Position numbers and translations under genes: made by a program
The notes under the pieces: model-generated
What the model was told of the DNA's origin: nothing
What the model saw: the letters and a program-made list of their open reading frames with translations, nothing else
Databases searched by the model: none
Shown here: positions 1,777-57,513 of the stretch, piece after piece
Layout: each line of letters opens with the position of its first letter
Numbering within the stretch: position 1 is the stretch's first letter
DNA from: Alphaproteobacteria bacterium
GTDB taxonomy: Bacteria > Pseudomonadota > Alphaproteobacteria > Rs-D84
Length of the DNA stretch: 64,000 nt
Direction of reading: 5' to 3'
Assembly (NCBI GenBank): GCA_017463185.1
Contig: JAFTPS010000010.1
Location: forward strand, 1-64,000

Positions 1777-1996
1777 TTGTAACCGCCGTCGTTTTATGAT
1801 AAAATTCAAGCACTGGCGAAGTGCCGGTCGGTCGTAGAAAACCGCTGATAACGCTGTCCGTGGGGACAATAAAAACCTCCAACCTAAAAACTGGTTGGAG
1901 GGTGGCGATATACATAAATAAGCCCGCTATTTGCGTTATCAATAGTTTCTAACCTCCAACCACTTTCGCCGAAGGTGGTTTTTATATAGATAGGAG
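1777..1996 (+). promoter_or_regulatory. Candidate attenuator leader G, divergent copy
   Basis: Promoter TTGTAA (1777-1782), N17, TAAAAT (1800-1805). The predicted transcript opens with the hairpin GCACT-ggcga-AGTGC. Strand 1 AACCTCCAACC (1874-1884) and strand 3 AACCTCCAACC (1951-1961) are identical, and both can pair with strand 2 GGTTGGAGG (1893-1901). The last three bases of strand 3 are also the first bases of a 9-bp terminator stem, ACCACTTTC / GAAGGTGGT (1959-1979), followed by TTTTATAT. The TAGGAG ribosome binding site begins at 1991. A TATAC motif sits between strands 2 and 3, as in the other copies. The layout is that of a transcription attenuator; the signal sensed is unknown. Confidence 0.7.
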
Positions 1997-2001
1997 TTAA
2001 A

Positions 2002-2868
2002 ATGTTTAGACGTAACCTTGGGGAAGCAAGCACATCATACGCAGAGGGAAAAATCGCATCGTCTGTAATTGATGCTGTATTAGAGTTTTGCAAAACAAAT
2101 GGTCATCGTCCTGACCCAGAAAGCTTACTGGGAAAGTTGTATTCAGCTGTTTATGCCTATGACCACAACAGGCGATATTGGGAGCATAATGATAATGATG
2201 CAATGTATGCTAATAAAATACACAGGGTAAGAGCTTATCCATCATACGGCAGAGAGAAATTTCGTAATGCCAACCGAAAGATTAGCATACGCAAAGCAGC
2301 CGAAGACGCGGTTGGCGTTGAACGAGTATTTCCACGTGCTAAATTGATACGTGTAATATTTGGTGAACCAGAATATCAACGCATAATGGCACAAAAAAAC
2401 GATATAGCAGCCAAAATATTTGCAGAATATTTTGATAAAATACTTAATAAAAAACTTGATGAACGTGATATTCGTTTATTGGAAATGGGCGTTGGTATCG
2501 GCGTTACATCGGAAATGAAGTCTGCTGAAGAAAAGCCAGCAGTTACACATAAAACAGCATCCAATAAAATGGGATATTTTGCACAAGGTTTGCACCCGCG
2601 CGATATTGCACAATATCATAACATAACAGAAGCACGTGTACGCCAGTTGCAAAATAAGGCAATTGAAAAATTACAAAACAATAAAGAGTTGAGCCTATTC
2701 TTTAATCTTTACCAAAATGGCGATGTTGATGGTATGCTGGCACTGTTGCCAGAGCAAGAACAACGGGTGTATAAATTTCAGCAAAAGAATAAAATGGCAG
2801 AAATACCCACAGACGAGGCCAACAAAGTTGGCGAATGGCTAGCCGATAATATGCGCTTTCACCGTTAG
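2002..2868 (+). CDS. Sigma-70 region 4-like DNA-binding protein
   Basis: A 288-residue soluble protein. Residues about 150-230 resemble sigma-70 region 4: a leader helix (LDERDIRLLEMGVGIG) and, after an insertion, a helix-turn-helix (DIAQYHNITEARVRQLQNKA) close to the family pattern IA..L.VT..RVRQI...A. The N-terminal 140 residues match nothing I know and show no clear region 2. It may be a divergent sigma factor or a transcriptional regulator that borrowed the region 4 fold. The ATG follows TAGGAG. Candidate attenuator G lies directly upstream, so expression is probably controlled by premature termination. The metallopeptidase-like gene follows after 13 bases. Confidence 0.7.
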   Translation: MFRRNLGEASTSYAEGKIASSVIDAVLEFCKTNGHRPDPESLLGKLYSAVYAYDHNRRYWEHNDNDAMYANKIHRVRAYPSYGREKFRNANRKISIRKAAEDAVGVERVFPRAKLIRVIFGEPEYQRIMAQKNDIAAKIFAEYFDKILNKKLDERDIRLLEMGVGIGVTSEMKSAEEKPAVTHKTASNKMGYFAQGLHPRDIAQYHNITEARVRQLQNKAIEKLQNNKELSLFFNLYQNGDVDGMLALLPEQEQRVYKFQQKNKMAEIPTDEANKVGEWLADNMRFHR

Positions 2869-3596: not shown

Positions 3597-4124
3597 ATGA
3601 AATATGAACTTCAGCCACTGACTGTTGCGGATGCGGACAAATTGTATGATTTTTATCAAACAATACCCGCGGCGGAAAATGGCGCGGGCAACAAAGCGCA
3701 TGGTCTGACCAAGGAACAGTTCATAGACTGGATAAAGCAAGAAGAATATTGGTCGCGTGGGCTGAATCTGCGCGCGGATTGGGTTGCAGCTACAACATAT
3801 GTTCTGTATGTTGACGATGTGCCGGTCGGGCGCAGCAACCTGCGCCACTATTTGAATGCTGCATTGGAACAGGATGGCGGGCATATTGGCTTGTCAGTCG
3901 CACCACAACACCGCGGACACGGATACAGTAAAATTCTGTTGCGGGAAACATTGAAATGTGCCAAGGAAAAAGGAATCAATCCTGTGCTGGTATTTCATTT
4001 TGCAGATAACATCCCCGCATGCAAAATGTCCGAAAGTGTCGGTGGCAAATTAGTTGAAGAAACCTTTCACGAAAAGCATGGACGCCTCATTAGAAAGTAT
4101 GCTTTTGATACAGATAATTTGTAA
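3597..4124 (+). CDS. GNAT family N-acetyltransferase
   Basis: A 175-residue protein with the GNAT acetyl-CoA binding signature around residues 98-115 (GLSVAPQHRGHGYSKILL), matching V.P..RG.G. The N-terminal half provides the variable acceptor-binding part. The substrate cannot be predicted. The ribosome binding site AAAGG overlaps the end of the previous gene. A degraded copy of this gene's 3' end lies at 4878-4985, so a related gene was once present twice in this region. Confidence 0.88.
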   Translation: MKYELQPLTVADADKLYDFYQTIPAAENGAGNKAHGLTKEQFIDWIKQEEYWSRGLNLRADWVAATTYVLYVDDVPVGRSNLRHYLNAALEQDGGHIGLSVAPQHRGHGYSKILLRETLKCAKEKGINPVLVFHFADNIPACKMSESVGGKLVEETFHEKHGRLIRKYAFDTDNL

Positions 4125-4872: not shown

Positions 4873-4877
4873 GCACA

Positions 4878-4985
4878 AGTGTCGGCGGTCGGTTAGTTCA
4901 AGAAATATTTCACGAAAAGCATGGGTGTTTCATTAGAAAATATACTTTTGATACATCGGATATTTTATCTGGTTCCTGTCAATAA
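4878..4985 (+). pseudogene. C-terminal remnant of a GNAT acetyltransferase
   Basis: Translated in frame from 4878, this gives SVGGRLVQEIFHEKHG, continues as IRKYTFDTSDIL and stops at 4983-4985. It parallels the last 30 residues of the intact GNAT at 3597-4124 (SVGGKLVEETFHEKHG) with about 80 percent identity at the DNA level. No upstream part remains. The copy is either a relic of tandem duplication or the trace of a deleted neighbour. Confidence 0.85.
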
Positions 4986-33522: not shown

Positions 33523-34461
33523 TTACTGGGCCACTTTCCCACCAAACGTAGAATGGAAATGAACAGTATTGCCAATCGCACCTTCCAGGTCATACACCCC
33601 AAGTTCAGCAGTCGCTTCACTGGCTGTGGCATCTTCACCATAAAAATTCACCGAAACAGACGCGTAACCCATATCGTCCATAGAAATAGGTTCTGACACG
33701 TTCGCCAGTGCAAATGTATTATCTATGTCTACATTATCTGGATTGGAAAATGCAATATTCTGTCCTGTAGTATCTGTGGCACTATTATATCTAACTTTGT
33801 ACCATTTGTCTGCATCCGATTTTGTAAAATCCATTACCAATGTATACGCACCTGTTGTGCCATTGAAAACCAGATTTGCATCATCTGTATTTGTTATCAT
33901 AACATCCGAACCATCCGTAATGTCGGACCCAATCACAGCCACCGCGCTTCCTGTAAAAGAATTTGTACCGTTGACGGTTTGAATCTCTTTATCTGAATTT
34001 CCTGCCAAAAGAGGCGCCCATGTTGCTTCTGTTTCATATCCTGACACCATCGTTTTTACATACATCATACCAAAGTCGGCAAATTTCAGACCGGCACGTC
34101 TGCCATACAGTTGAACCGCACCGTCTTCTAATACTCCTTTATTTTCGCCATCAGGATATTCTATACTTGAAATCTTGCCCGTTTCTGGAACAACATGATA
34201 TGTGACACCGTTTGTTTCGCCTTCTGGCGTTTCCCAAGTTTCTGCTAATGCAATAATTTGTCCTTTGTCATTTGTGCTTACAACATAGTCCCCGTCAAAG
34301 GCAACGTTTTCTACTGCGGTAGCTCCACCGATTTCGGGTATGATTGGTGTAGTGTTTCCTGTAGGTGCCCCGCCAATACCGGCACCACCACCCGAACCGC
34401 CACTGCCACCACCACATGCAGTCAATGCTAAAATAGATGTCAAAATCGCAAGTTTTTTCAT
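33523..34461 (-). CDS. Putative Slam-dependent surface lipoprotein 1
   Basis: 312 residues with lipobox LTAC at Cys16 and a long Gly/Ser linker (GGGSGGSGGGAGIGG). The mature part is all beta. The last 60 residues, with SVSVNFYGEDATASEATAEL and HFHSTFGGKVAQ, match the FYG..A.E..G...FGG end of TbpB-type barrels. First gene of the Slam operon, preceded by candidate attenuator B and a good promoter. GGGAG lies before the ATG. It is probably a surface binding protein; ligand unknown. No TonB-dependent receptor lies beside it, unlike tbp or hpu loci. Confidence 0.75.
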   Translation of the reverse strand: MKKLAILTSILALTACGGGSGGSGGGAGIGGAPTGNTTPIIPEIGGATAVENVAFDGDYVVSTNDKGQIIALAETWETPEGETNGVTYHVVPETGKISSIEYPDGENKGVLEDGAVQLYGRRAGLKFADFGMMYVKTMVSGYETEATWAPLLAGNSDKEIQTVNGTNSFTGSAVAVIGSDITDGSDVMITNTDDANLVFNGTTGAYTLVMDFTKSDADKWYKVRYNSATDTTGQNIAFSNPDNVDIDNTFALANVSEPISMDDMGYASVSVNFYGEDATASEATAELGVYDLEGAIGNTVHFHSTFGGKVAQ

Positions 34462-34478
34462 ATATAACTCCCATGTAT

Positions 34479-34749
34479 AAAATTAGACCGCCATGGGATA
34501 TCAGGCGGTCGGGGAGTTCACAAATCATTCTGTTATTGATTCTGCTGCTTTCGGGCTGCCCCTGTTGTATAGCAAACAGCTCCCCGACTTATGCAAGTCA
34601 GGGATAAATAACGACACAAAACCACAGGAATGACATCGGATAACGATGCCATTAGCATTTTGCACCGAACAGAATAGGCTTGTGACAGCCCCGAACCCAT
34701 ATCCCTATGGATTCATTCATAGTGTATCAATTAGATTAATCAATTTCAA
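34479..34749 (-). promoter_or_regulatory. Candidate attenuator leader B with promoter
   Basis: Promoter on the minus strand: TTGAAA (34744-34749), N17, TACACT (34721-34726). Predicted start about 34714, exactly at the hairpin GAATCCAT-agggat-ATGGGTTC. Next is GGGGCTGTCACAAGCC. Strand 1 CCCTGACTT (34595-34603), strand 2 AAGTCGGGGAGC (34579-34590), strand 3 CTCCCCGACC (34507-34516). Strand 2 can pair with either. Terminator GACCGCC...GGCGGTC plus TAATTTT (34479-34510) overlaps strand 3 and ends just before the GGGAG ribosome binding site. The hairpin loop AGGGATA (34700-34706) is also complementary to TATCCCT (34600-34606), a possible pseudoknot overlapping strand 1. Confidence 0.78.
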
Positions 34750-35892: not shown

Positions 35893-36180
35893 TTGATTTC
35901 CGGGGATTTTAATAGTAAAATGCATTTGAATTCACAGGGATAGTGAGTTCGGGCTGTCGTAAGCCTTACAGTAAAGCGGTACGAAAAAACGTACTGAATC
36001 CGCACGAATATAAGATGCGGTGCATTTTTGCACCTTTTCTTATGTCGCACCCCGCACTGCCTGTTTGGTCGGGGGGCCGCCTGCATATACAACAGGGTTC
36101 TTCCCGAAAGCAGTGCGGAATCATTCTTTACTGTGATTTACGAACCTCCCGACCGCCAAACCTGTGGCGGTTTAATTTTG
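35893..36180 (+). promoter_or_regulatory. Candidate attenuator leader C with promoter
   Basis: Promoter TTGATT (35893-35898), N17, TAAAAT (35916-35921). Predicted start about 35928, exactly at the hairpin GAATTCAC-agggata-GTGAGTTC (35928-35950), followed by GGGCTGTCGTAAGCC. Strand 2 GGTCGGGGGG (36067-36076) pairs without mismatch to strand 3 CCTCCCGACC (36145-36154); upstream CCCCG (36050-36054) can compete. Between them lie ATATACAACAGGG and CCCGAAAGCAG. Terminator GACCGCC...GGCGGT plus TTAATTTTG ends at 36180, right before GGGGGCG and the ATG. The only plus-strand member of the four close copies. Confidence 0.78.
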
Positions 36181-36196
36181 TTTTATGGGGGCGAAA

Positions 36197-38626
36197 ATGT
36201 CGGTAAAGTTCAAAGATTTTATATTAGCCTGGTATCGGGCGTATCACCTTTATAACATGGATGACCCGCGCAAACAGCGTTGGATGGACCTGCGGGGCAA
36301 GGCGTTTGAAATAAACGCGCGTGGTGAATATGTTTTTTTGGATGATAAACGCACCGCCACGCAAAAGGGCTGGACCAACCCGAAAACGGGATTGTTGGCC
36401 ACGGATTTGCCAGCCCCCGATTTATCGGACGAGGATTGGCGATATTTTTACGCCTTGTGTCGTACTGCAATCCGCAGTATCAATGACCGCCGGGAAGATT
36501 TGATGCGTAATGACCCAGATAAAAATCCATTACCGATTGATAAATGGTTTGGGGATAAAAATCTGAAAGCCTTTTCCGCGCAAGAGGTATCGCCCGCCAT
36601 CAAAGATAAGTTTCGTTCATTTGCCCTGTTGGTTCGGAACGAGGCGCGTCTGAAAAACAAATTGTTGGACAGTTTTTCTGCGGATTATTCATTGGAAACA
36701 TTTCTGGCGGATTTAATAGACCAGGATTATTCCCGTAATTCCCAGTTCACAATACAAAAAATTCAATCCCTTATTCGTATATTGCCCGGTATGCTGTCGC
36801 CGACATACGATTTCAAAACCGGTGAAAACAAATATCCATTAGAGGATTCAACCCGCACCCAGATTTATAAAATTTTTGCCCCTGCGGCCACGGTTGATGA
36901 CGCCGACGCATTGTATGGCGAATTTGATTCTTTGTCAGCAGCGTTGGACCCCGCGAACGAGCAAATCAACCCTGCCCAATTGCGCCAGTTCCAGGACCCC
37001 AGTGTTTATCGTGAAATATTAAAAGCACTGTATGCGGCCGATAAACCGGAAAAAAAATCGTCTTTTTATTCCCAGTTTGCGTCCGCCGGCGGTGACGAAA
37101 TTACAAACTATATGAGCCAGGTTATAACCGGCAATAATTATGAATCCGGCGCAAATGAACTGATACCAAAACTTAGCAAACAGCAAAATACCCTGGAAAA
37201 AATCAAAGAAAAAATTGATGATTTCACGGACGAGCATTTTAAACGATTGACCGACCGTGCGGCACGCCATATTTACATAGACGTCAACGCGCAACCAATT
37301 GTAAACGCTATTGTCAAAGAAAAGATTTTGCCCACGGACGGCATTTCAAAAATTCTTGAAAAAAAAGAGGATATCAAAAAACGCGTTCAGTCCAAACAGC
37401 CGTCTGCTAAAAAAGGCTGCGACTTTTTGTTTGAAGCCCTGGAATACATCAAATCATCTGGCGATATGGACGCGGCATTGGACGGTGCTTTTCGTAATGG
37501 TCGCAAGGCAGAATCTATCGCGTTTGAGGTAATAAAATACGCTATTTCAAAACACAAAGTAGCCGAGGCAAAAACTGCATTAGAGGTCTTGTCCGTAATG
37601 CGATATGATACATTTTCATCTGCGCACTGGACCGAATTTCACAAATCCCAGACTCCAATTTTTGGGGATGATAAATTATCTTTTAACAAAGATAGTGAAT
37701 CTGTATCCTTTATAACGCGTGCGCTGGATAAAGCGTTTTATTTGGGTGTAAATGGAATGTTTTGGCTGGGGGTAATGGGGCGTAATATCATCCAGCATCG
37801 TCGCGGTAAAATGGATATGAACGATATGTCGCGAATGGAAAGTGCGTTGGACAAAATAAACACAGACAGTGCGTCTTTTACCGATTTGTCGCGTGCGCAA
37901 CGGGAATATACGGAAATTCACGGGCGACTGAATACGGCCCGTGATGGCTTTGGTTATGCCATGTTGCGCCGTGCCGAGCGCGATGATTTGAACAATCGTC
38001 TGACTGAATTGAACGCGCGTCGTGCGGTGGCACGCCTGGATGCGGGGGCGGATTTGGGGGCGATTGACGATGAAATAGCCCGAATTCAGGATGAGTTGGC
38101 CCAAATTGCCGCATTGGAAACACGACATTCTGCGGATTTTGCACGCCTTGACAACCTAGACCGCGATATTACGGATTTAGAAAATCAAATAGAAGCTGAA
38201 AAATCTGTTTTGGCCACTATGGCGACTGCGCCCGACATGACCGTCAATGCCCAACGCGCAAAAATAAAAAATCTGAATTTGCGATTGGGGGCGTTGCGTG
38301 TGTCCAAGAAATCATACCAGGCTGATTGTGATAATTATTTGGAATTGGAACGCGAAGACCGTGTCGCCCAGGAATTATACCAACGCCTGCAATCGGCTGC
38401 CGACCGTGGCGCGGCACGAGCAACGGAATCCAAACCATATAATGCCCCAAAATCAGATATTCAAAATATGCAAATGCTGATGGCATTTTGGAACGCGGTC
38501 AATGGATACACCCGCGGTCTGGATGTAAATTCGTATAATATATTCAAAAATATCAAAGATGTCCGAAAATCGTCCAATTTACAGAAAACTTTTAACGATA
38601 TGTTTGACTCGGGGCGCATCGTATAA
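36197..38626 (+). CDS. Large coiled-coil protein, 809 aa
   Basis: I do not recognise this protein. No signal peptide or membrane helix is convincing, though one hydrophobic patch (AFYLGVNGMFWLGVMG) lies near residue 520. The N-terminal 500 residues are mostly helical and charged. Residues about 555-745 are strongly coiled-coil, rich in Glu, Arg, Leu and Asp (RDDLNNRLTELNARRAVARL and following). The start at 36197 has GGGGGCG 4 bases upstream; ATG 36185 is the alternative. It may be structural or secreted by an unknown route. Preceded by candidate attenuator C; no operon partner. Confidence 0.75.
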   Translation: MSVKFKDFILAWYRAYHLYNMDDPRKQRWMDLRGKAFEINARGEYVFLDDKRTATQKGWTNPKTGLLATDLPAPDLSDEDWRYFYALCRTAIRSINDRREDLMRNDPDKNPLPIDKWFGDKNLKAFSAQEVSPAIKDKFRSFALLVRNEARLKNKLLDSFSADYSLETFLADLIDQDYSRNSQFTIQKIQSLIRILPGMLSPTYDFKTGENKYPLEDSTRTQIYKIFAPAATVDDADALYGEFDSLSAALDPANEQINPAQLRQFQDPSVYREILKALYAADKPEKKSSFYSQFASAGGDEITNYMSQVITGNNYESGANELIPKLSKQQNTLEKIKEKIDDFTDEHFKRLTDRAARHIYIDVNAQPIVNAIVKEKILPTDGISKILEKKEDIKKRVQSKQPSAKKGCDFLFEALEYIKSSGDMDAALDGAFRNGRKAESIAFEVIKYAISKHKVAEAKTALEVLSVMRYDTFSSAHWTEFHKSQTPIFGDDKLSFNKDSESVSFITRALDKAFYLGVNGMFWLGVMGRNIIQHRRGKMDMNDMSRMESALDKINTDSASFTDLSRAQREYTEIHGRLNTARDGFGYAMLRRAERDDLNNRLTELNARRAVARLDAGADLGAIDDEIARIQDELAQIAALETRHSADFARLDNLDRDITDLENQIEAEKSVLATMATAPDMTVNAQRAKIKNLNLRLGALRVSKKSYQADCDNYLELEREDRVAQELYQRLQSAADRGAARATESKPYNAPKSDIQNMQMLMAFWNAVNGYTRGLDVNSYNIFKNIKDVRKSSNLQKTFNDMFDSGRIV

Positions 38627-48252: not shown

Positions 48253-49080
48253 TTAATCTTCTATCCATTGTGGACTGGAACATAATTTGTTCATTTTCAG
48301 ATGTTTTTTCAGGTCTTTTATTTTTCCATCCGTACCTTTTGAGCCGTCGTACATTGCAACCTCGCCATTGTTAAACAGTTTACAACAAAACCACCATGTC
48401 GTGGGGGATTCTGAATCAGCCTCTTGTGCGATTAAACATTTCCTGGATTCTACATCACAATCAAAATACAGGTCTTTTTCGCCGCCTAGTGCTTGGATTA
48501 ATTGATGGTTTACGCATCTTAAATATAAATTTTCTTGCAGTTCTTGCAGATTGATTTTACGTATTGTATGGGAATCTTTTTCCATTTTTTGCCATGTTCC
48601 GTTTTTGCAAATTATTTTTTCTGTTGATACTTCAATTTCATATTTTTCCCCAGTATACGCATTTTTATGTTCAACAATGTGAAAAGCACCGTCTGGCGTA
48701 CAACTTTCACCAATAACTGGTGCACAGACAGTGTATTCTGGATTTGTTTTACATAAATCTAAATATTTTTCTTGTTCCTTGATAAGGCGAACGGATAACT
48801 CTGCGCATCTGTTATATATACTTTCTTCATCCATTGACAGATTGCATTGCAATAAAGCGTACATGCAATTATATCCGAATTCGTACGCAGAATATCCAGC
48901 GGCGGGTTTCCATACATTTTCTCTGTATTTATAAAAACAGTCTTTTGCCTCTGATGGTAAAATGTCGCTTCTTAAAACATCACCCACGACCCCCGGATAC
49001 CAATAGGTAAAATCATCCATTTCAATTGCATAGCCATTGATTGTAAATAAACACAGACAAACAGATAAAAATATTTTCAT
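48253..49080 (-). CDS. Secreted Cys-rich protein, 275 aa
   Basis: Signal peptide of about 18 residues (ending GYA-IE); start at 49080, behind GGAG. The mature protein has about 14 Cys scattered as pairs, indicating disulfides, including NCMYALLQCNLS, SCTPDGAF and WWFCCKLF. No known domain. Periplasmic or surface location is likely. Its mRNA begins with candidate attenuator D, whose terminator ends just before the ribosome binding site. Convergent with truA. Confidence 0.75.
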   Translation of the reverse strand: MKIFLSVCLCLFTINGYAIEMDDFTYWYPGVVGDVLRSDILPSEAKDCFYKYRENVWKPAAGYSAYEFGYNCMYALLQCNLSMDEESIYNRCAELSVRLIKEQEKYLDLCKTNPEYTVCAPVIGESCTPDGAFHIVEHKNAYTGEKYEIEVSTEKIICKNGTWQKMEKDSHTIRKINLQELQENLYLRCVNHQLIQALGGEKDLYFDCDVESRKCLIAQEADSESPTTWWFCCKLFNNGEVAMYDGSKGTDGKIKDLKKHLKMNKLCSSPQWIED

Positions 49081-49096
49081 TTCCACTCCAATTATA

Positions 49097-49344
49097 AAAT
49101 TAAACCGCCGTGGAATTTGGCGGTCGGGGAGTTGGTAAATCATTATCGTACTGATTCTGTTGCTTTCGGGTCAGCCCTGTTGTATAGCGAACAGCCCCCC
49201 GACTGCTTTTACAGTCAGGGATAAATAACGATGCAAAACCACAGGAACATTATCGGATTTACGACGCGCCTTTATTTTGCACCGACGATAACAGGCTTAC
49301 CACAGCCCCGAATCCAATTCCCATCAGATTCAATTTGAATTCTA
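49097..49344 (-). promoter_or_regulatory. Candidate attenuator leader D
   Basis: Weak promoter on the minus strand with -10 TAGAAT (49339-49344). The predicted start is near the hairpin GAATCTGA-tgggaa-TTGGATTC (49310-49331), followed by GGGGCTGTGGTAAGCC. Strand 1 CCCTGACTG (49212-49220), strand 2 CAGTCGGGGGGC (49194-49205), strand 3 CTCCCCGACC (49122-49131). The module GCTATACAACAGGGC...CCCGAAAGC lies between strands 2 and 3. Terminator ACCGCC...GGCGGT plus TTAATTTT (49097-49124) overlaps strand 3. The stretch CCTGTGGTTTTG...TCGTTATTTATCCC is nearly identical to copy B. Confidence 0.78.
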
Positions 49345-54919: not shown

Positions 54920-56494
54920 ATGGCAAAATACATATTTATTACTGGTGGTGTTGTATCAAGTCTTGGCAAGGGCGTCGCAGCGGCAGGGTGTGGCGCCCTT
55001 CTTCAATCGCGTGGGTATACGGTTCACGCACGGAAATTTGACCCGTATTTAAATATTGACCCCGGCACTATGTCACCATTTCAACATGGCGAAGTCTATG
55101 TGACGAACGACGGTTATGAAACAGACCTTGATTTGGGATATTATGAACGTTTCTTGGGCGCGCACCTGACCCGCAACGATTCTGTGTCTGGTGGACGTAT
55201 TTATTGGGATGTGTTGAATGCTGAACGGCACGGTGATTATCTGGGGGCGACGGTCCAGATGATTCCGCACGTATCTAATAAAATCAAAGAATATATTTCC
55301 GCACCCACGGATACAGATTTTGTCGTCTGTGAAATCGGTGGCACTGTCGGTGATATAGAAGGTAAAATATTCCTGGAATCTATTCGTCAGTTTGCAAATG
55401 ATGTCGGGCGTCGCAATGTAATGTTTATTCATTTGACCTTGGCGCCATATCTGGAAAAATCTGGGGAATTAAAAACCAAACCAACCCAGATGTCCGTACG
55501 TCAATTGTTGGAAAATGGGATTCAGGCGGATATGCTGATTGTGCGCACGCCACGAATGTTGACGGTGGATGAAAAAAATAAAATTGGAATGTTCTGCAAC
55601 TTGCCTGCTAAAAGTGTAATCAGTGGCATTGATGTTGACAATATTTATAAAATACCACTAGCGTACGAGGGTCAGCACGTATTTGACAATATTGCTGAAC
55701 ATTTTGGTCTGTCCAATGCACGCGGTGACATGACACGATTTGAACGTATTGAAAATTATCTGGCGGCACATTTGCCCACAACCACAATTGGGATTGTGGG
55801 CAAATACTTTAACGTGCCCGATGCATACAAATCACTGAACGAAGCTTTGTTCCACGCAGGTATTCAAAACAATGTTCATGTGCGTCTAAAAAAGATAGAT
55901 GCGGAAAATTTTACCCCCGATGATTGTGTGGATGTTGATGGAATTTTGGTGCCGGGTGGTTTTGGTGCGCGTGGTGTATCCGGCAAGATTGCTGCCGCAA
56001 AGTATGCCCGTGAAAATAATATTCCATATATGGGAATTTGTCTGGGGATGCAGGTTGCTGTTATAGAATTTGCCCGAAATGTCCTGGGGATAAAAGATGC
56101 AGACTCTGGCGAGTTTTCCAAAGCTTGTACCCCAGTAATAGATATTATCGCAGACTGTGATGCAGAAGATTATGGTGGCACATTGCGTCTGGGGGCATAT
56201 CCGTGTGAAATCACGCCTAATACATTGGCGCATAAAGTCTATGGCGCAACAACTATCAGTGAACGTCATCGCCATCGTTATGAAATGAACATAGAAATGG
56301 AACAAAAATTTGCGGATGCTGGTATGATAATATCTGGTCGCAGTCCAGATGGTCGTCTGCCAGAAATGGTTGAATTAAAAAATCATCCGTTTTTTATTGC
56401 GGGTCAATTTCATCCCGAATTTCAATCCAGTCCCTATACCGGTCACCCGATGTTTAATGCATTCATCGCCGCCACAATCAAGGACCATAAATAA
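54920..56494 (+). CDS. pyrG: CTP synthase
   Basis: 524 residues. The N-terminal synthetase domain starts FITGGVVSSLGKGVAAAG and includes EIGGTVGDIEG and HLTLAPYLEKSGELKTKPTQ. The C-terminal class I glutaminase domain has Cys in YMGICLGMQ and His-Glu in QFHPEF. It aminates UTP to CTP using glutamine. Strong AAGGAGG before the ATG. A bidirectional terminator follows. Confidence 0.98.
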   Translation: MAKYIFITGGVVSSLGKGVAAAGCGALLQSRGYTVHARKFDPYLNIDPGTMSPFQHGEVYVTNDGYETDLDLGYYERFLGAHLTRNDSVSGGRIYWDVLNAERHGDYLGATVQMIPHVSNKIKEYISAPTDTDFVVCEIGGTVGDIEGKIFLESIRQFANDVGRRNVMFIHLTLAPYLEKSGELKTKPTQMSVRQLLENGIQADMLIVRTPRMLTVDEKNKIGMFCNLPAKSVISGIDVDNIYKIPLAYEGQHVFDNIAEHFGLSNARGDMTRFERIENYLAAHLPTTTIGIVGKYFNVPDAYKSLNEALFHAGIQNNVHVRLKKIDAENFTPDDCVDVDGILVPGGFGARGVSGKIAAAKYARENNIPYMGICLGMQVAVIEFARNVLGIKDADSGEFSKACTPVIDIIADCDAEDYGGTLRLGAYPCEITPNTLAHKVYGATTISERHRHRYEMNIEMEQKFADAGMIISGRSPDGRLPEMVELKNHPFFIAGQFHPEFQSSPYTGHPMFNAFIAATIKDHK

Positions 56495-56521
56495 AAAAAT
56501 CCCCAAACGGGGATTTTTTTT
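56494..56521. terminator. Bidirectional terminator
   Basis: AAAAAAATCCCC-aaac-GGGGATTTTTTTT between the convergent pyrG gene and the secreted protein gene 56520-57179. Confidence 0.85.
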
Positions 56522-57179
56522 ATTCACTATAGAAACAGCGATTACCGCCAAAATTAAAAGTCCCTTTTTCATCACTGCCAGACATAATGAAACAAGTTGT
56601 AATTTTGTCGTTGCTGCCTGGGATTGATATACCATCATCGGGACACAAGGAACAGCCCGACATGCTGGAACTACCGGTGCTACTGATGCCATAATAACCA
56701 TTGGCACAACGATAAATACGTGCAACATCCTTGCAGGTGGTTGAATTACCACATGCCCGCACGATTCGCATTTGATACCCTATGGCATAGTCCGTCCATG
56801 CAGAATTGGTGCATGTGCTGGTGGTACAGGTTGTTGCATCAGATTCTGGATTTGATGCGGTTGTTTTGACACAGGTATAGTATGGAACAGATGTGCAATT
56901 GCCACCTGTATAATTTTTTTGAACAAGACTGTATCCTGTCGCACATGTATCACATGAAATCACCATCTGTTGTTTTTCGTTTTCGTCAGTGTGGCATCTG
57001 AATTTCTTGGTGGCACAATTTTCCCCAACGTTATCAGCAACACCATTTGGTTTTGGACAGTCGCCCGCGCCATTATATGTGGCTTCATAGACCCATCCGC
57101 TGGTGCACGTATATGCCAATGCATTTGTGTCAACAAATCCAACAGCAAGCAGTGTTGAAATTAATAGTTTTTGTTTCAT
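56520..57179 (-). CDS. Secreted Cys-rich protein, 219 aa
   Basis: Start at 57179 behind AAGGAGG; the frame stays open to 57224. Signal peptide of about 22 residues (ending ALA-YT). About 19 Cys in the mature protein. N-terminal ratios such as CPKPNG...NCATKKFRC and a middle SCDTCATGYS suggest small disulfide modules. The C-terminus has CSLCPDDGISIPGSNDKIT, then CFIMSG and FNFGGNRCFYSE, as in 53929-54627. Preceded by candidate attenuator F. Surface or periplasmic protein of unknown function. Confidence 0.75.
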   Translation of the reverse strand: MKQKLLISTLLAVGFVDTNALAYTCTSGWVYEATYNGAGDCPKPNGVADNVGENCATKKFRCHTDENEKQQMVISCDTCATGYSLVQKNYTGGNCTSVPYYTCVKTTASNPESDATTCTTSTCTNSAWTDYAIGYQMRIVRACGNSTTCKDVARIYRCANGYYGISSTGSSSMSGCSLCPDDGISIPGSNDKITTCFIMSGSDEKGTFNFGGNRCFYSE

Positions 57180-57210
57180 TCTTTGACCTCCTTGATTTTT
57201 TTCGCGAATG

Positions 57211-57461
57211 AAAAAACCACCCAAAACATTCGAGTGGTCAGGAGGTTGATAGCAATCGTTAGAATTGTGTGCTTATTCAGTATATTCGCAACCCTCCTGA
57301 CCCAATGGGGACAGGAGTTTGTTTTTCGTCGTAATAATAAAAAAGACGCATCTGCTGCGTCATTGAGTATATATTCCGACGCTAACGAGCGGGCTATCAC
57401 ACCCCATCGTCAGAATTTCTGACGACATGCAGATTATACCCGATAAAATGGCGTGTTGCAA
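57211..57461 (-). promoter_or_regulatory. Candidate attenuator leader F, divergent copy, with promoter
   Basis: Promoter TTGCAA (57456-57461), N17, TATAAT (57433-57438), start about 57426, followed by the hairpin CGTCAGAA-a-TTCTGACG, then GGGGTGTGATAGCCC. A first terminator, GACGCA-gcaga-TGCGTC plus T6, lies at 57330-57361. Strand 1 is CTCCTG (57312-57317), strand 2 GGGTCAGGAGGGTT (57290-57303), strand 3 AACCTCCTGACCAC (57233-57246). Strand 3 enters the second terminator ACCACTC...GGGTGGT plus T6 (57211-57238), just before the ribosome binding site. Confidence 0.75.
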
Positions 57462-57472
57462 TATTTAGATAT

Positions 57473-57501
57473 AAAAAATCCCCATTTGGGGATTTTTTTT
57501 A
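57473..57501. terminator. Terminator of the pyk gene
   Basis: AAAAAATCCCC-attt-GGGGATTTTTTTT; in the minus direction it ends the pyruvate kinase transcript. Confidence 0.85.
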
Positions 57502-57513
57502 AACGCATTTTTA

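What the first reader, a model, noticed from the sequence alone, without database searches (positions are those of the whole stretch)
57211..57461. Divergent leader with two terminators and a three-strand switch
Leader F (promoter TTGCAA-N17-TATAAT) keeps the plan but not the sequence of copies A-D: strand 2 GGTCAGGAGG can pair with CTCCTG upstream or AACCTCCTGACC downstream, and the latter merges with a terminator before the ribosome binding site. It also has an extra terminator about 70 bases after the start. The TATAC element remains between strands 2 and 3. The controlled gene is again a secreted Cys-rich protein.
Basis: partly seen in the sequence, partly recalled or inferred. Interest (0 to 1): 0.7.

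Follow-up and report, generated by a model that had tools for sequence, protein, structure and literature searches.

The report
Phage-type antisense RNA turned gene switch
The stretch is a folded RNA leader, one of about 60 in this one-megabase gut bacterium, that looks like a phage-type antisense RNA module rewired into an on/off transcription switch, mostly in front of genes for exported proteins.

Summary
On the minus strand (about 57426-57211) lie the stated promoter, three mutually exclusive strands, an early terminator (T1) and a terminator before the gene (T2). Across 22 paralogues these helices show massive compensatory change; class A-D leaders show the same independently. The genome (Candidatus Enterousia-like gut alphaproteobacterium, 1.04 Mb) holds about 60 copies; 127 of 142 genomes sampled in the order have them. 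The 3' domain is a divergent relative of Rfam sRNA-Xcc1. Loci of that family elsewhere carry the same upstream a/b and, in many, a second copy (a2/b2) around the ribosome binding site of Bro-N, KilA-N, P22_AR_N or SymE genes: the plan of the phage P1/P7 C4 antisense RNA. The Enterousia copies lack a2/b2 and have strand 1 and T2, so I read them as a C4-type translational antisense module rewired into a transcription attenuator. Pairings are shown by covariation; regulation, trigger and direction are inferred. Neither Rfam membership test is met for F. New variant of a known kind.

The parts
57433..57461 (-). promoter, TTGCAA-N17-TATAAT
   Evidence: sequence. 44 of 54 paralogues have a TATAAT-like box with at least 5 of 6 matches upstream of the leader (heuristic)
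57408..57424 (-). P1, hairpin at or next to the transcription start
   Evidence: fold; covariation in class 2
57390..57405 (-). P2 region GGGGTGTGATAGCCCG: local GGG:CCC hairpin with element a in its loop; GGGG can also pair CCUC of strand 3
   Evidence: class 2; the local P2 was read by eye from the alignments
57393..57399 (-). element a (TGATAGC), pairs a' at 57253-57247
   Evidence: covariation 98.5% paired, compensatory change in 5 of 6 pairs; permutation z 12.6
57382..57388 (-). element b (TCGTTAG), pairs b' at 57262-57256
   Evidence: compensatory change in 5 of 6 pairs; permutation z 12.8
57327..57381 (-). P3 stem enclosing T1
   Evidence: fold; P3/P4 covary in class 2
57339..57361 (-). 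T1, early terminator-like hairpin with U6
   Evidence: T1-like in 39 of 54 paralogues (shuffled 12.7) and in 23 of 30 sRNA-Xcc1 loci (shuffled 4.7)
57309..57317 (-). strand 1, pairs strand 2
   Evidence: z 28.5
57293..57302 (-). strand 2, pairs strand 1 or strand 3
57270..57291 (-).
   Evidence: stem covariation 98.9% paired; resembles the sRNA-Xcc1 core AAUACAAuA..GAAuAA without the inner hairpin
57252..57268 (-). P6 hairpin, loop holds b'
   Evidence: 100% paired, one compensatory pair
57247..57253 (-). a' (GCTATCA)
57236..57245 (-). strand 3, pairs strand 2; its 5' half can pair the 5' GGGG; its GACC is shared with T2
57211..57239 (-). T2, intrinsic terminator before the gene
   Evidence: stem covaries; T2-like in 52 of 54 paralogues
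56520..57179 (-). controlled gene, 219-aa Cys-rich exported-type protein, no Pfam match; ribosome binding site AAGGAGGTC at 57193-57185
1875..1987 (+). another leader (3' domain), class 1-like, before ORF 2002-2868
34478..34717 (-). class-2 leader before a lipoprotein-like ORF 33523-34461
35926..36179 (+). class-2 leader before ORF 36185-38626
49096..49334 (-). class-2 leader before ORF 48253-49080

Best explanation
F is a cis-acting transcription attenuator derived from, or a sister of, the sRNA-Xcc1/C4-type antisense-RNA module. SHOWN by covariation or statistics: a (5' end) pairs a'; b pairs b' in the P6 loop; strand 2 pairs strand 1 or strand 3; T2 shares GACC with strand 3; no second a/b copy lies at the ribosome binding site. 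INFERRED: in the resting state the nascent RNA folds P1, P2, P3/T1 and the 1:2 hairpin; b' and a' then grip the 5' end, and the 5' GGGG holds the first half of strand 3. This leaves GACC free to build T2, so RNA polymerase stops and releases a leader of about 215 nt. When strand 3 instead displaces strand 1 and closes the C4-like fold (2:3 around P5 and P6), the CC needed by T2 is taken and the exported protein is made. The trigger is unknown. I favour an event that frees a'/b' or strand 2, such as binding of the leader's a/b by the short RNA of its own locus, or RNase P cleavage at the closing stem as in phage C4.
For: 22 F-like paralogues: OFF structure 96.0% paired, 104 cells changed on both sides against 32 in shuffles; slid partners only 31-52% paired; ON structure 95.5%. 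Class-2 leaders give the same helices independently. Within-leader a:a' and b:b' exceed re-dealt leaders by z 12.6 and 12.8 in 54 leaders (first version) and z 6.7 and 11.8 in 27 loci mostly from other alphaproteobacterial genera. F's MFE is the OFF fold; forcing 2:3 costs 14 kcal/mol, pseudoknots not counted. Relation: RF02221 finds class-2 leaders in this genome at E down to 1.1e-7; R2 (class 2) finds class 1 at 2e-8 to 5e-4; R1 finds class 2; alphaproteobacterial L238 reaches 56.2 bits, over the Rfam cut-off. 30 sRNA-Xcc1 loci carry upstream a/b (z 11.7, 6.5) and RBS a2/b2 (z 4.0, 8.9); Enterousia lacks a2/b2 (z 1.0, -0.2). Strand 1: Enterousia z 28.5, sRNA-Xcc1 loci z 0.3; T2: 52/54 against 2/30. 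In Xanthomonas campestris the homologous RNA is a Northern-detected, RACE-mapped 88-nt transcript (PMC2996969), so this 3' domain can exist as a short RNA. The exact a-b pair of F occurs once in the sense direction in the whole genome, at F itself.
Against: No transcript data for this organism, so termination, read-through and trigger are untested. The energy model favours OFF so strongly that the ON state needs a factor or kinetic effect not identified here. Strands 1-3 vary little among class-1 copies, so the switch pairs have few compensatory changes of their own (2 of 7 pairs for 1:2, 2 of 10 for 2:3). A mobile, highly copied leader could be kept partly by duplication. R2 was built with strand 1 and T2 included, so the distant alphaproteobacterial set is biased towards loci that have them.
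Confidence: 0.62

Rival explanations
1. The module still works as an antisense RNA in trans: terminated or RNase P-processed 3' domains of each copy bind a/b of new transcripts from the same locus, or other mRNAs, and the leader mainly serves to make and target this RNA.
For: C4 of phages P1/P7 works in trans after RNase P processing (PMC5320573); sRNA-Xcc1 is an independent 88-nt RNA in Xanthomonas; all 53 leaders parsed here have a distinct (a,b) pair.
Against: The RBS target copy is absent in Enterousia; the exact a-b pair of F is found nowhere else in the genome; cross-talk between copies is not lower than when b modules are re-dealt (8 against 6.8), so selection for private addresses is not shown.
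Confidence: 0.17
2. A metabolite or second-messenger riboswitch: the conserved P5 loop together with the a/b pseudoknots is an aptamer, strand 3 and T2 the expression platform.
For: Conserved internal loop inside variable helices, plus an expression platform; many copies before exported proteins would fit a global signal.
Against: Related loci carry an RBS target copy and phage antirepressor or SymE genes, which fits an antisense system and no metabolic theme; no Rfam riboswitch match.
Confidence: 0.12
3. Protein-dependent antitermination: the 5' hairpins recruit a factor, or RNA polymerase directly, that overrides T1 and T2 (put/LoaP-like).
For: Two hairpins lie at the very 5' end and two terminators in series.
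Against: The 5' elements covary with a' and b', so they serve RNA-RNA pairing; no dedicated factor was identified.
Confidence: 0.05
4. A structured but non-switching 5' UTR carried by a duplicating promoter-leader-gene cassette.
For: The F unit sits between the convergent genes pyrG and pyk, which in relative L141 are 32 bp apart around one shared terminator; none of 34 relatives with pyrG near pyk encodes the F protein.
Against: Strand 1:2:3 exclusivity and T2 overlap are kept across very divergent copies.
Confidence: 0.04

Closest known systems
Rfam RF02221 sRNA-Xcc1 (Xanthomonas and other Proteobacteria; integron cassettes, phages)
   Same: Closing stem (2:3), P5 with AAUA..GAAUA loop, P6 with b' loop, a' before the 3' strand, upstream a/b, T1-like hairpin
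   Different: F is below the Rfam cut-off; no RBS copy a2/b2; has strand 1 and terminator T2; about 60 copies per genome, mostly before exported-protein genes; Rfam describes the family as an sRNA
C4 antisense RNA of phages P1/P7 (RF01695), with c4-a1b1 (RF03163)
   Same: Plan a/b upstream, b' and a' exposed by a three-stem RNA
   Different: No RF01695 match in this genome; C4 blocks translation through a target at the ribosome binding site (PMC5320573), which F lacks; the link between sRNA-Xcc1 and C4 rests here on plan and gene context, not on a profile match
Three-strand transcription attenuators and riboswitch expression platforms (general)
   Same: Mutually exclusive 1:2 and 2:3 pairing, strand 3 overlapping an intrinsic terminator
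   Different: The sensing part looks like an antisense module rather than a known aptamer or leader peptide
C4-derived Group 1 sRNAs of Acinetobacter baumannii (PMC5320573)
   Same: Expansion of a phage-type antisense RNA to many chromosomal copies with variable a'
   Different: Reported there as processed sRNAs; here each copy is the leader of a gene and keeps its own a/b partner

Membership tests
sRNA-Xcc1 (RF02221) | covariance-model score at or above the gathering score (53 bits) | tested here: not met
   F not found; best leader of this genome 47.3 bits, E 1.1e-7. A related alphaproteobacterial leader, L238, is over it at 56.2
sRNA-Xcc1 (RF02221) | closing stem enclosing two hairpins, conserved AAUA/GAAUA loop in the first | tested here: met
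   covariation of 2:3, P5, P6; loop compared by eye
sRNA-Xcc1-type locus (as defined here) | upstream elements a and b complementary to a' and b' | tested here: met
   sRNA-Xcc1 loci z 11.7/6.5; Enterousia z 12.6/12.8
sRNA-Xcc1-type locus (as defined here) | second copy a2/b2 around the ribosome binding site of the downstream gene | tested here: not met
   Enterousia z 1.0/-0.2 against 4.0/8.9 in sRNA-Xcc1 loci
C4 antisense RNA (RF01695) | covariance-model match | tested here: not met
   no match at E <= 10 in the own genome
C4 antisense RNA (RF01695) | processing by RNase P at the 5' side of the closing stem | not testable with these tools
   strand 2 starts with GGU and strand 3 ends in RCC, which would suit RNase P; no RNA data
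C4 antisense RNA (RF01695) | translational repression through a target over the ribosome binding site | tested here: not met
   target copy absent
transcription attenuator | mutually exclusive pairings, one of which removes part of an intrinsic terminator | tested here: met
transcription attenuator | condition-dependent termination in vivo | not testable with these tools
   no transcript data
known riboswitch or T-box (any Rfam family) | match to a curated family | tested here: not met
riboswitch (general) | binds a small ligand directly | not testable with these tools
   no binding data

The most novel reading that the evidence does not exclude
A phage immunity-type antisense RNA has been domesticated into a lineage-wide switchboard: about 60 cis leaders in a one-megabase genome, each with its own unique a/b pairing, give every exported-protein cassette a private on/off RNA element that could set which surface or secreted proteins a cell shows.
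Probability: 0.25. Interest if true: 0.9.

Novelty: new variant of a known kind. Interest (0 to 1): 0.74.

Why it matters
It links an RNA annotated as an orphan sRNA (sRNA-Xcc1) to the C4 antisense plan, with upstream a/b and RBS a2/b2 copies that explain its gene context, and shows a branch that appears to have moved from translational to transcriptional control. Copy number is extreme: about 60 in 1.04 Mb, mostly before exported proteins of an uncultured gut lineage about whose host interaction little is known. The pairings give precise compensatory-mutation tests.

Tried and rejected
Rfam at gathering and relaxed thresholds gave nothing for F itself; RF01695 C4 gave nothing in the genome. 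Pfam named nothing for F's protein or four other leader-controlled proteins of the window; a sixth protein had only a sub-cut-off Sigma70_r4 match. Blastn of F against phages: no match. Selection against cross-talk between copies: not significant. Residual RBS target in Enterousia: absent. The first downstream-ORF parser mis-anchored several copies and was replaced. The first permutation test used a crude window; refine it. I first took the leader for an orphan riboswitch; the RBS copies in sRNA-Xcc1 loci changed that.

Full report
OBSERVATION. The finding lies on the minus strand. Promoter (57461-57433), strand 1 (57317-57309), strand 2 (57302-57293), strand 3 (57245-57236), an early terminator-like hairpin T1 (57361-57339) and a terminator T2 that shares GACC with strand 3 (57239-57211) are all present. 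The gene is a 219-aa, 17-Cys protein with a signal-peptide-like start and no Pfam match. The leader folds far better than dinucleotide shuffles (z -5.9).

A GENOME-WIDE FAMILY. Six lie in this window (1.9, 28, 34, 36, 49 and 57 kb). Of 142 genomes of the order, 127 have members. The genus is Candidatus Enterousia-like: pyruvate kinase is about 85-91% identical to gut MAGs including Ca. Enterousia.

RNAalifold on 22 whole leaders finds a long-range helix between the 5' end (a) and the bases just before strand 3 (a'), and a second between b and the loop of hairpin P6 (b'). Nearly every pair of a:a' changes on both sides. The complete OFF structure is 96.0% paired, with 104 both-side changes against 32 in shuffles; slid partners pair in only 31-52% of cells. 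The ON structure (2:3 instead of 1:2) is 95.5% paired. The class-2 leaders (21 sequences) give the same helices independently. In 54 leaders the a' and b' of each copy match its own upstream region far better than that of other copies (z 12.6 and 12.8). All 53 (a,b) pairs that could be parsed differ. In F, a TGATAGC pairs GCTATCA and b TCGTTAG pairs CTAACGA; the exact a-b combination occurs once in the sense direction in the whole genome.

STATES. The MFE of F is the OFF fold: a:a', b:b', GGGG:CCUC, 1:2 and T2 together. Forcing 2:3 raises the ensemble energy by 14 kcal/mol, pseudoknots not counted. a:a' crosses 2:3, so in simple models the two exclude each other. 2:3 occupies the CC of T2, 1:2 leaves it free. 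This is the classical logic of a terminator switch; direction and trigger are inference.

IDENTITY. A class-wide R2 search found matches in 20 of 252 genera of the class. One of them, L238, exceeds the Rfam cut-off of sRNA-Xcc1 (56.2 bits). RF02221 finds class-2 leaders of this genome at E down to 1.1e-7, but below its cut-off (47.3 of 53 bits). R2 finds class-1 leaders at 2e-8 to 5e-4. So F is tied to sRNA-Xcc1 through a chain of profile matches, not by a direct one.

THE sRNA-Xcc1 LOCI EXPLAIN THE PLAN. RF02221 is over its cut-off in 39 of 398 sampled genomes of the phylum. In 30 such loci the same a/b elements lie upstream (z 11.7 and 6.5), and a second copy, a2 - GGAG - b2, lies at the start codon of the next gene in many (z 4.0 and 8.9). 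Eight next genes tested are Bro-N (4), KilA-N, P22_AR_N and SymE (2). Related DNA is found in 38 phage records, several with a KilA-N gene or an sRNA-Xcc1 feature under the match. This is the plan of the phage P1/P7 C4 antisense RNA, whose b' loop covers a ribosome binding site while a' gives specificity, after RNase P processing (PMC5320573). In Xanthomonas campestris the RNA is 88 nt, seen on Northern blots and mapped by RACE (PMC2996969), and sits upstream of symE in an integron cassette (PMC12444791). In the held library only one paper contains both names; in the passages I read there they are listed as separate RNAs. A published link outside this open-licence library cannot be excluded. 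That C4 of P1/P7 has an upstream a1/b1 pair as well as a2/b2 I know from memory and from the name of RF03163 (c4-a1b1); I did not read the original papers.

THE ENTEROUSIA BRANCH IS REWIRED. It keeps a/b, T1 and the three-stem fold, lacks a2/b2 (z 1.0 and -0.2), and has strand 1 (z 28.5 against 0.3 in sRNA-Xcc1 loci) and T2 (52 of 54 against 2 of 30). Twenty-seven loci from other alphaproteobacterial genera also have strand 1 (z 17.6) and T2 (24 of 27) without clear a2/b2 (z 2.2 and 1.2), with the caveat that R2 selects for strand 1 and T2. The direction of change (antisense module first, attenuator later) is the simpler reading but was not tested on a tree. The F-type P5 loop AAUAUACUGAAUA reads as the sRNA-Xcc1 core AAUACAAuA...GAAuAA with the inner hairpin removed; one class-1 copy (L024) still has an inner hairpin.

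GENES. By a crude heuristic 38 of 54 downstream ORFs start like exported proteins, against 20 of 59 window ORFs (which include some leader-controlled ones), and 33 of 54 exceed 4% Cys against 8 of 59. Exceptions include a helix-turn-helix-type protein and a glycosyltransferase-type protein (by inspection). The F cassette sits between the convergent genes pyrG and pyk; in relative L141 these share one 32-bp terminator, and none of 34 relatives with pyrG near pyk encodes the F protein. So promoter, leader and gene look like a unit gained at a terminator.

VERDICT. Observation confirmed and enlarged. Best reading: a C4/sRNA-Xcc1-type antisense module rewired into a cis transcription attenuator (0.62). 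F is not filed as a member of RF02221 or RF01695, because score tests and the RBS-target test are not met; it works, by plan, like a rewired relative.

Noticed in passing
L248-L277 (sRNA-Xcc1 loci of other Proteobacteria): Many annotated sRNA-Xcc1 loci carry upstream a/b and RBS a2/b2 copies before Bro-N, KilA-N, P22_AR_N or SymE genes; the Rfam family looks like a C4-type antisense system and may deserve re-annotation.
   Followed up: yes
window 56494-57502: The F cassette (terminator, gene, leader, promoter, terminator) appears inserted between convergent pyrG and pyk; in relative L141 these genes are 32 bp apart around a single terminator.
   Followed up: partly
L047 (own genome C7:25857-25970): A complete leader without an evident full gene after it (best ORF 19 aa): possibly an orphaned or decayed cassette.
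   Followed up: no
window 4034-4112 and 4877-4955: Two 79-nt direct repeats, 82% identical, 843 nt apart, unrelated to the leaders.
   Followed up: no
own genome, C-termini of class-1 downstream proteins: Many of the Cys-rich exported proteins end in a shared motif of the type CYIPSGTSFSDTTGTGTYTxNCYYTE; no Pfam family was found for the one tested (F).
   Followed up: no
window 2002-2868 (+): Leader-controlled ORF with a sub-cut-off Sigma70_r4 match (23.5 of 24.1 bits): a possible regulator under the same leader type.
   Followed up: no
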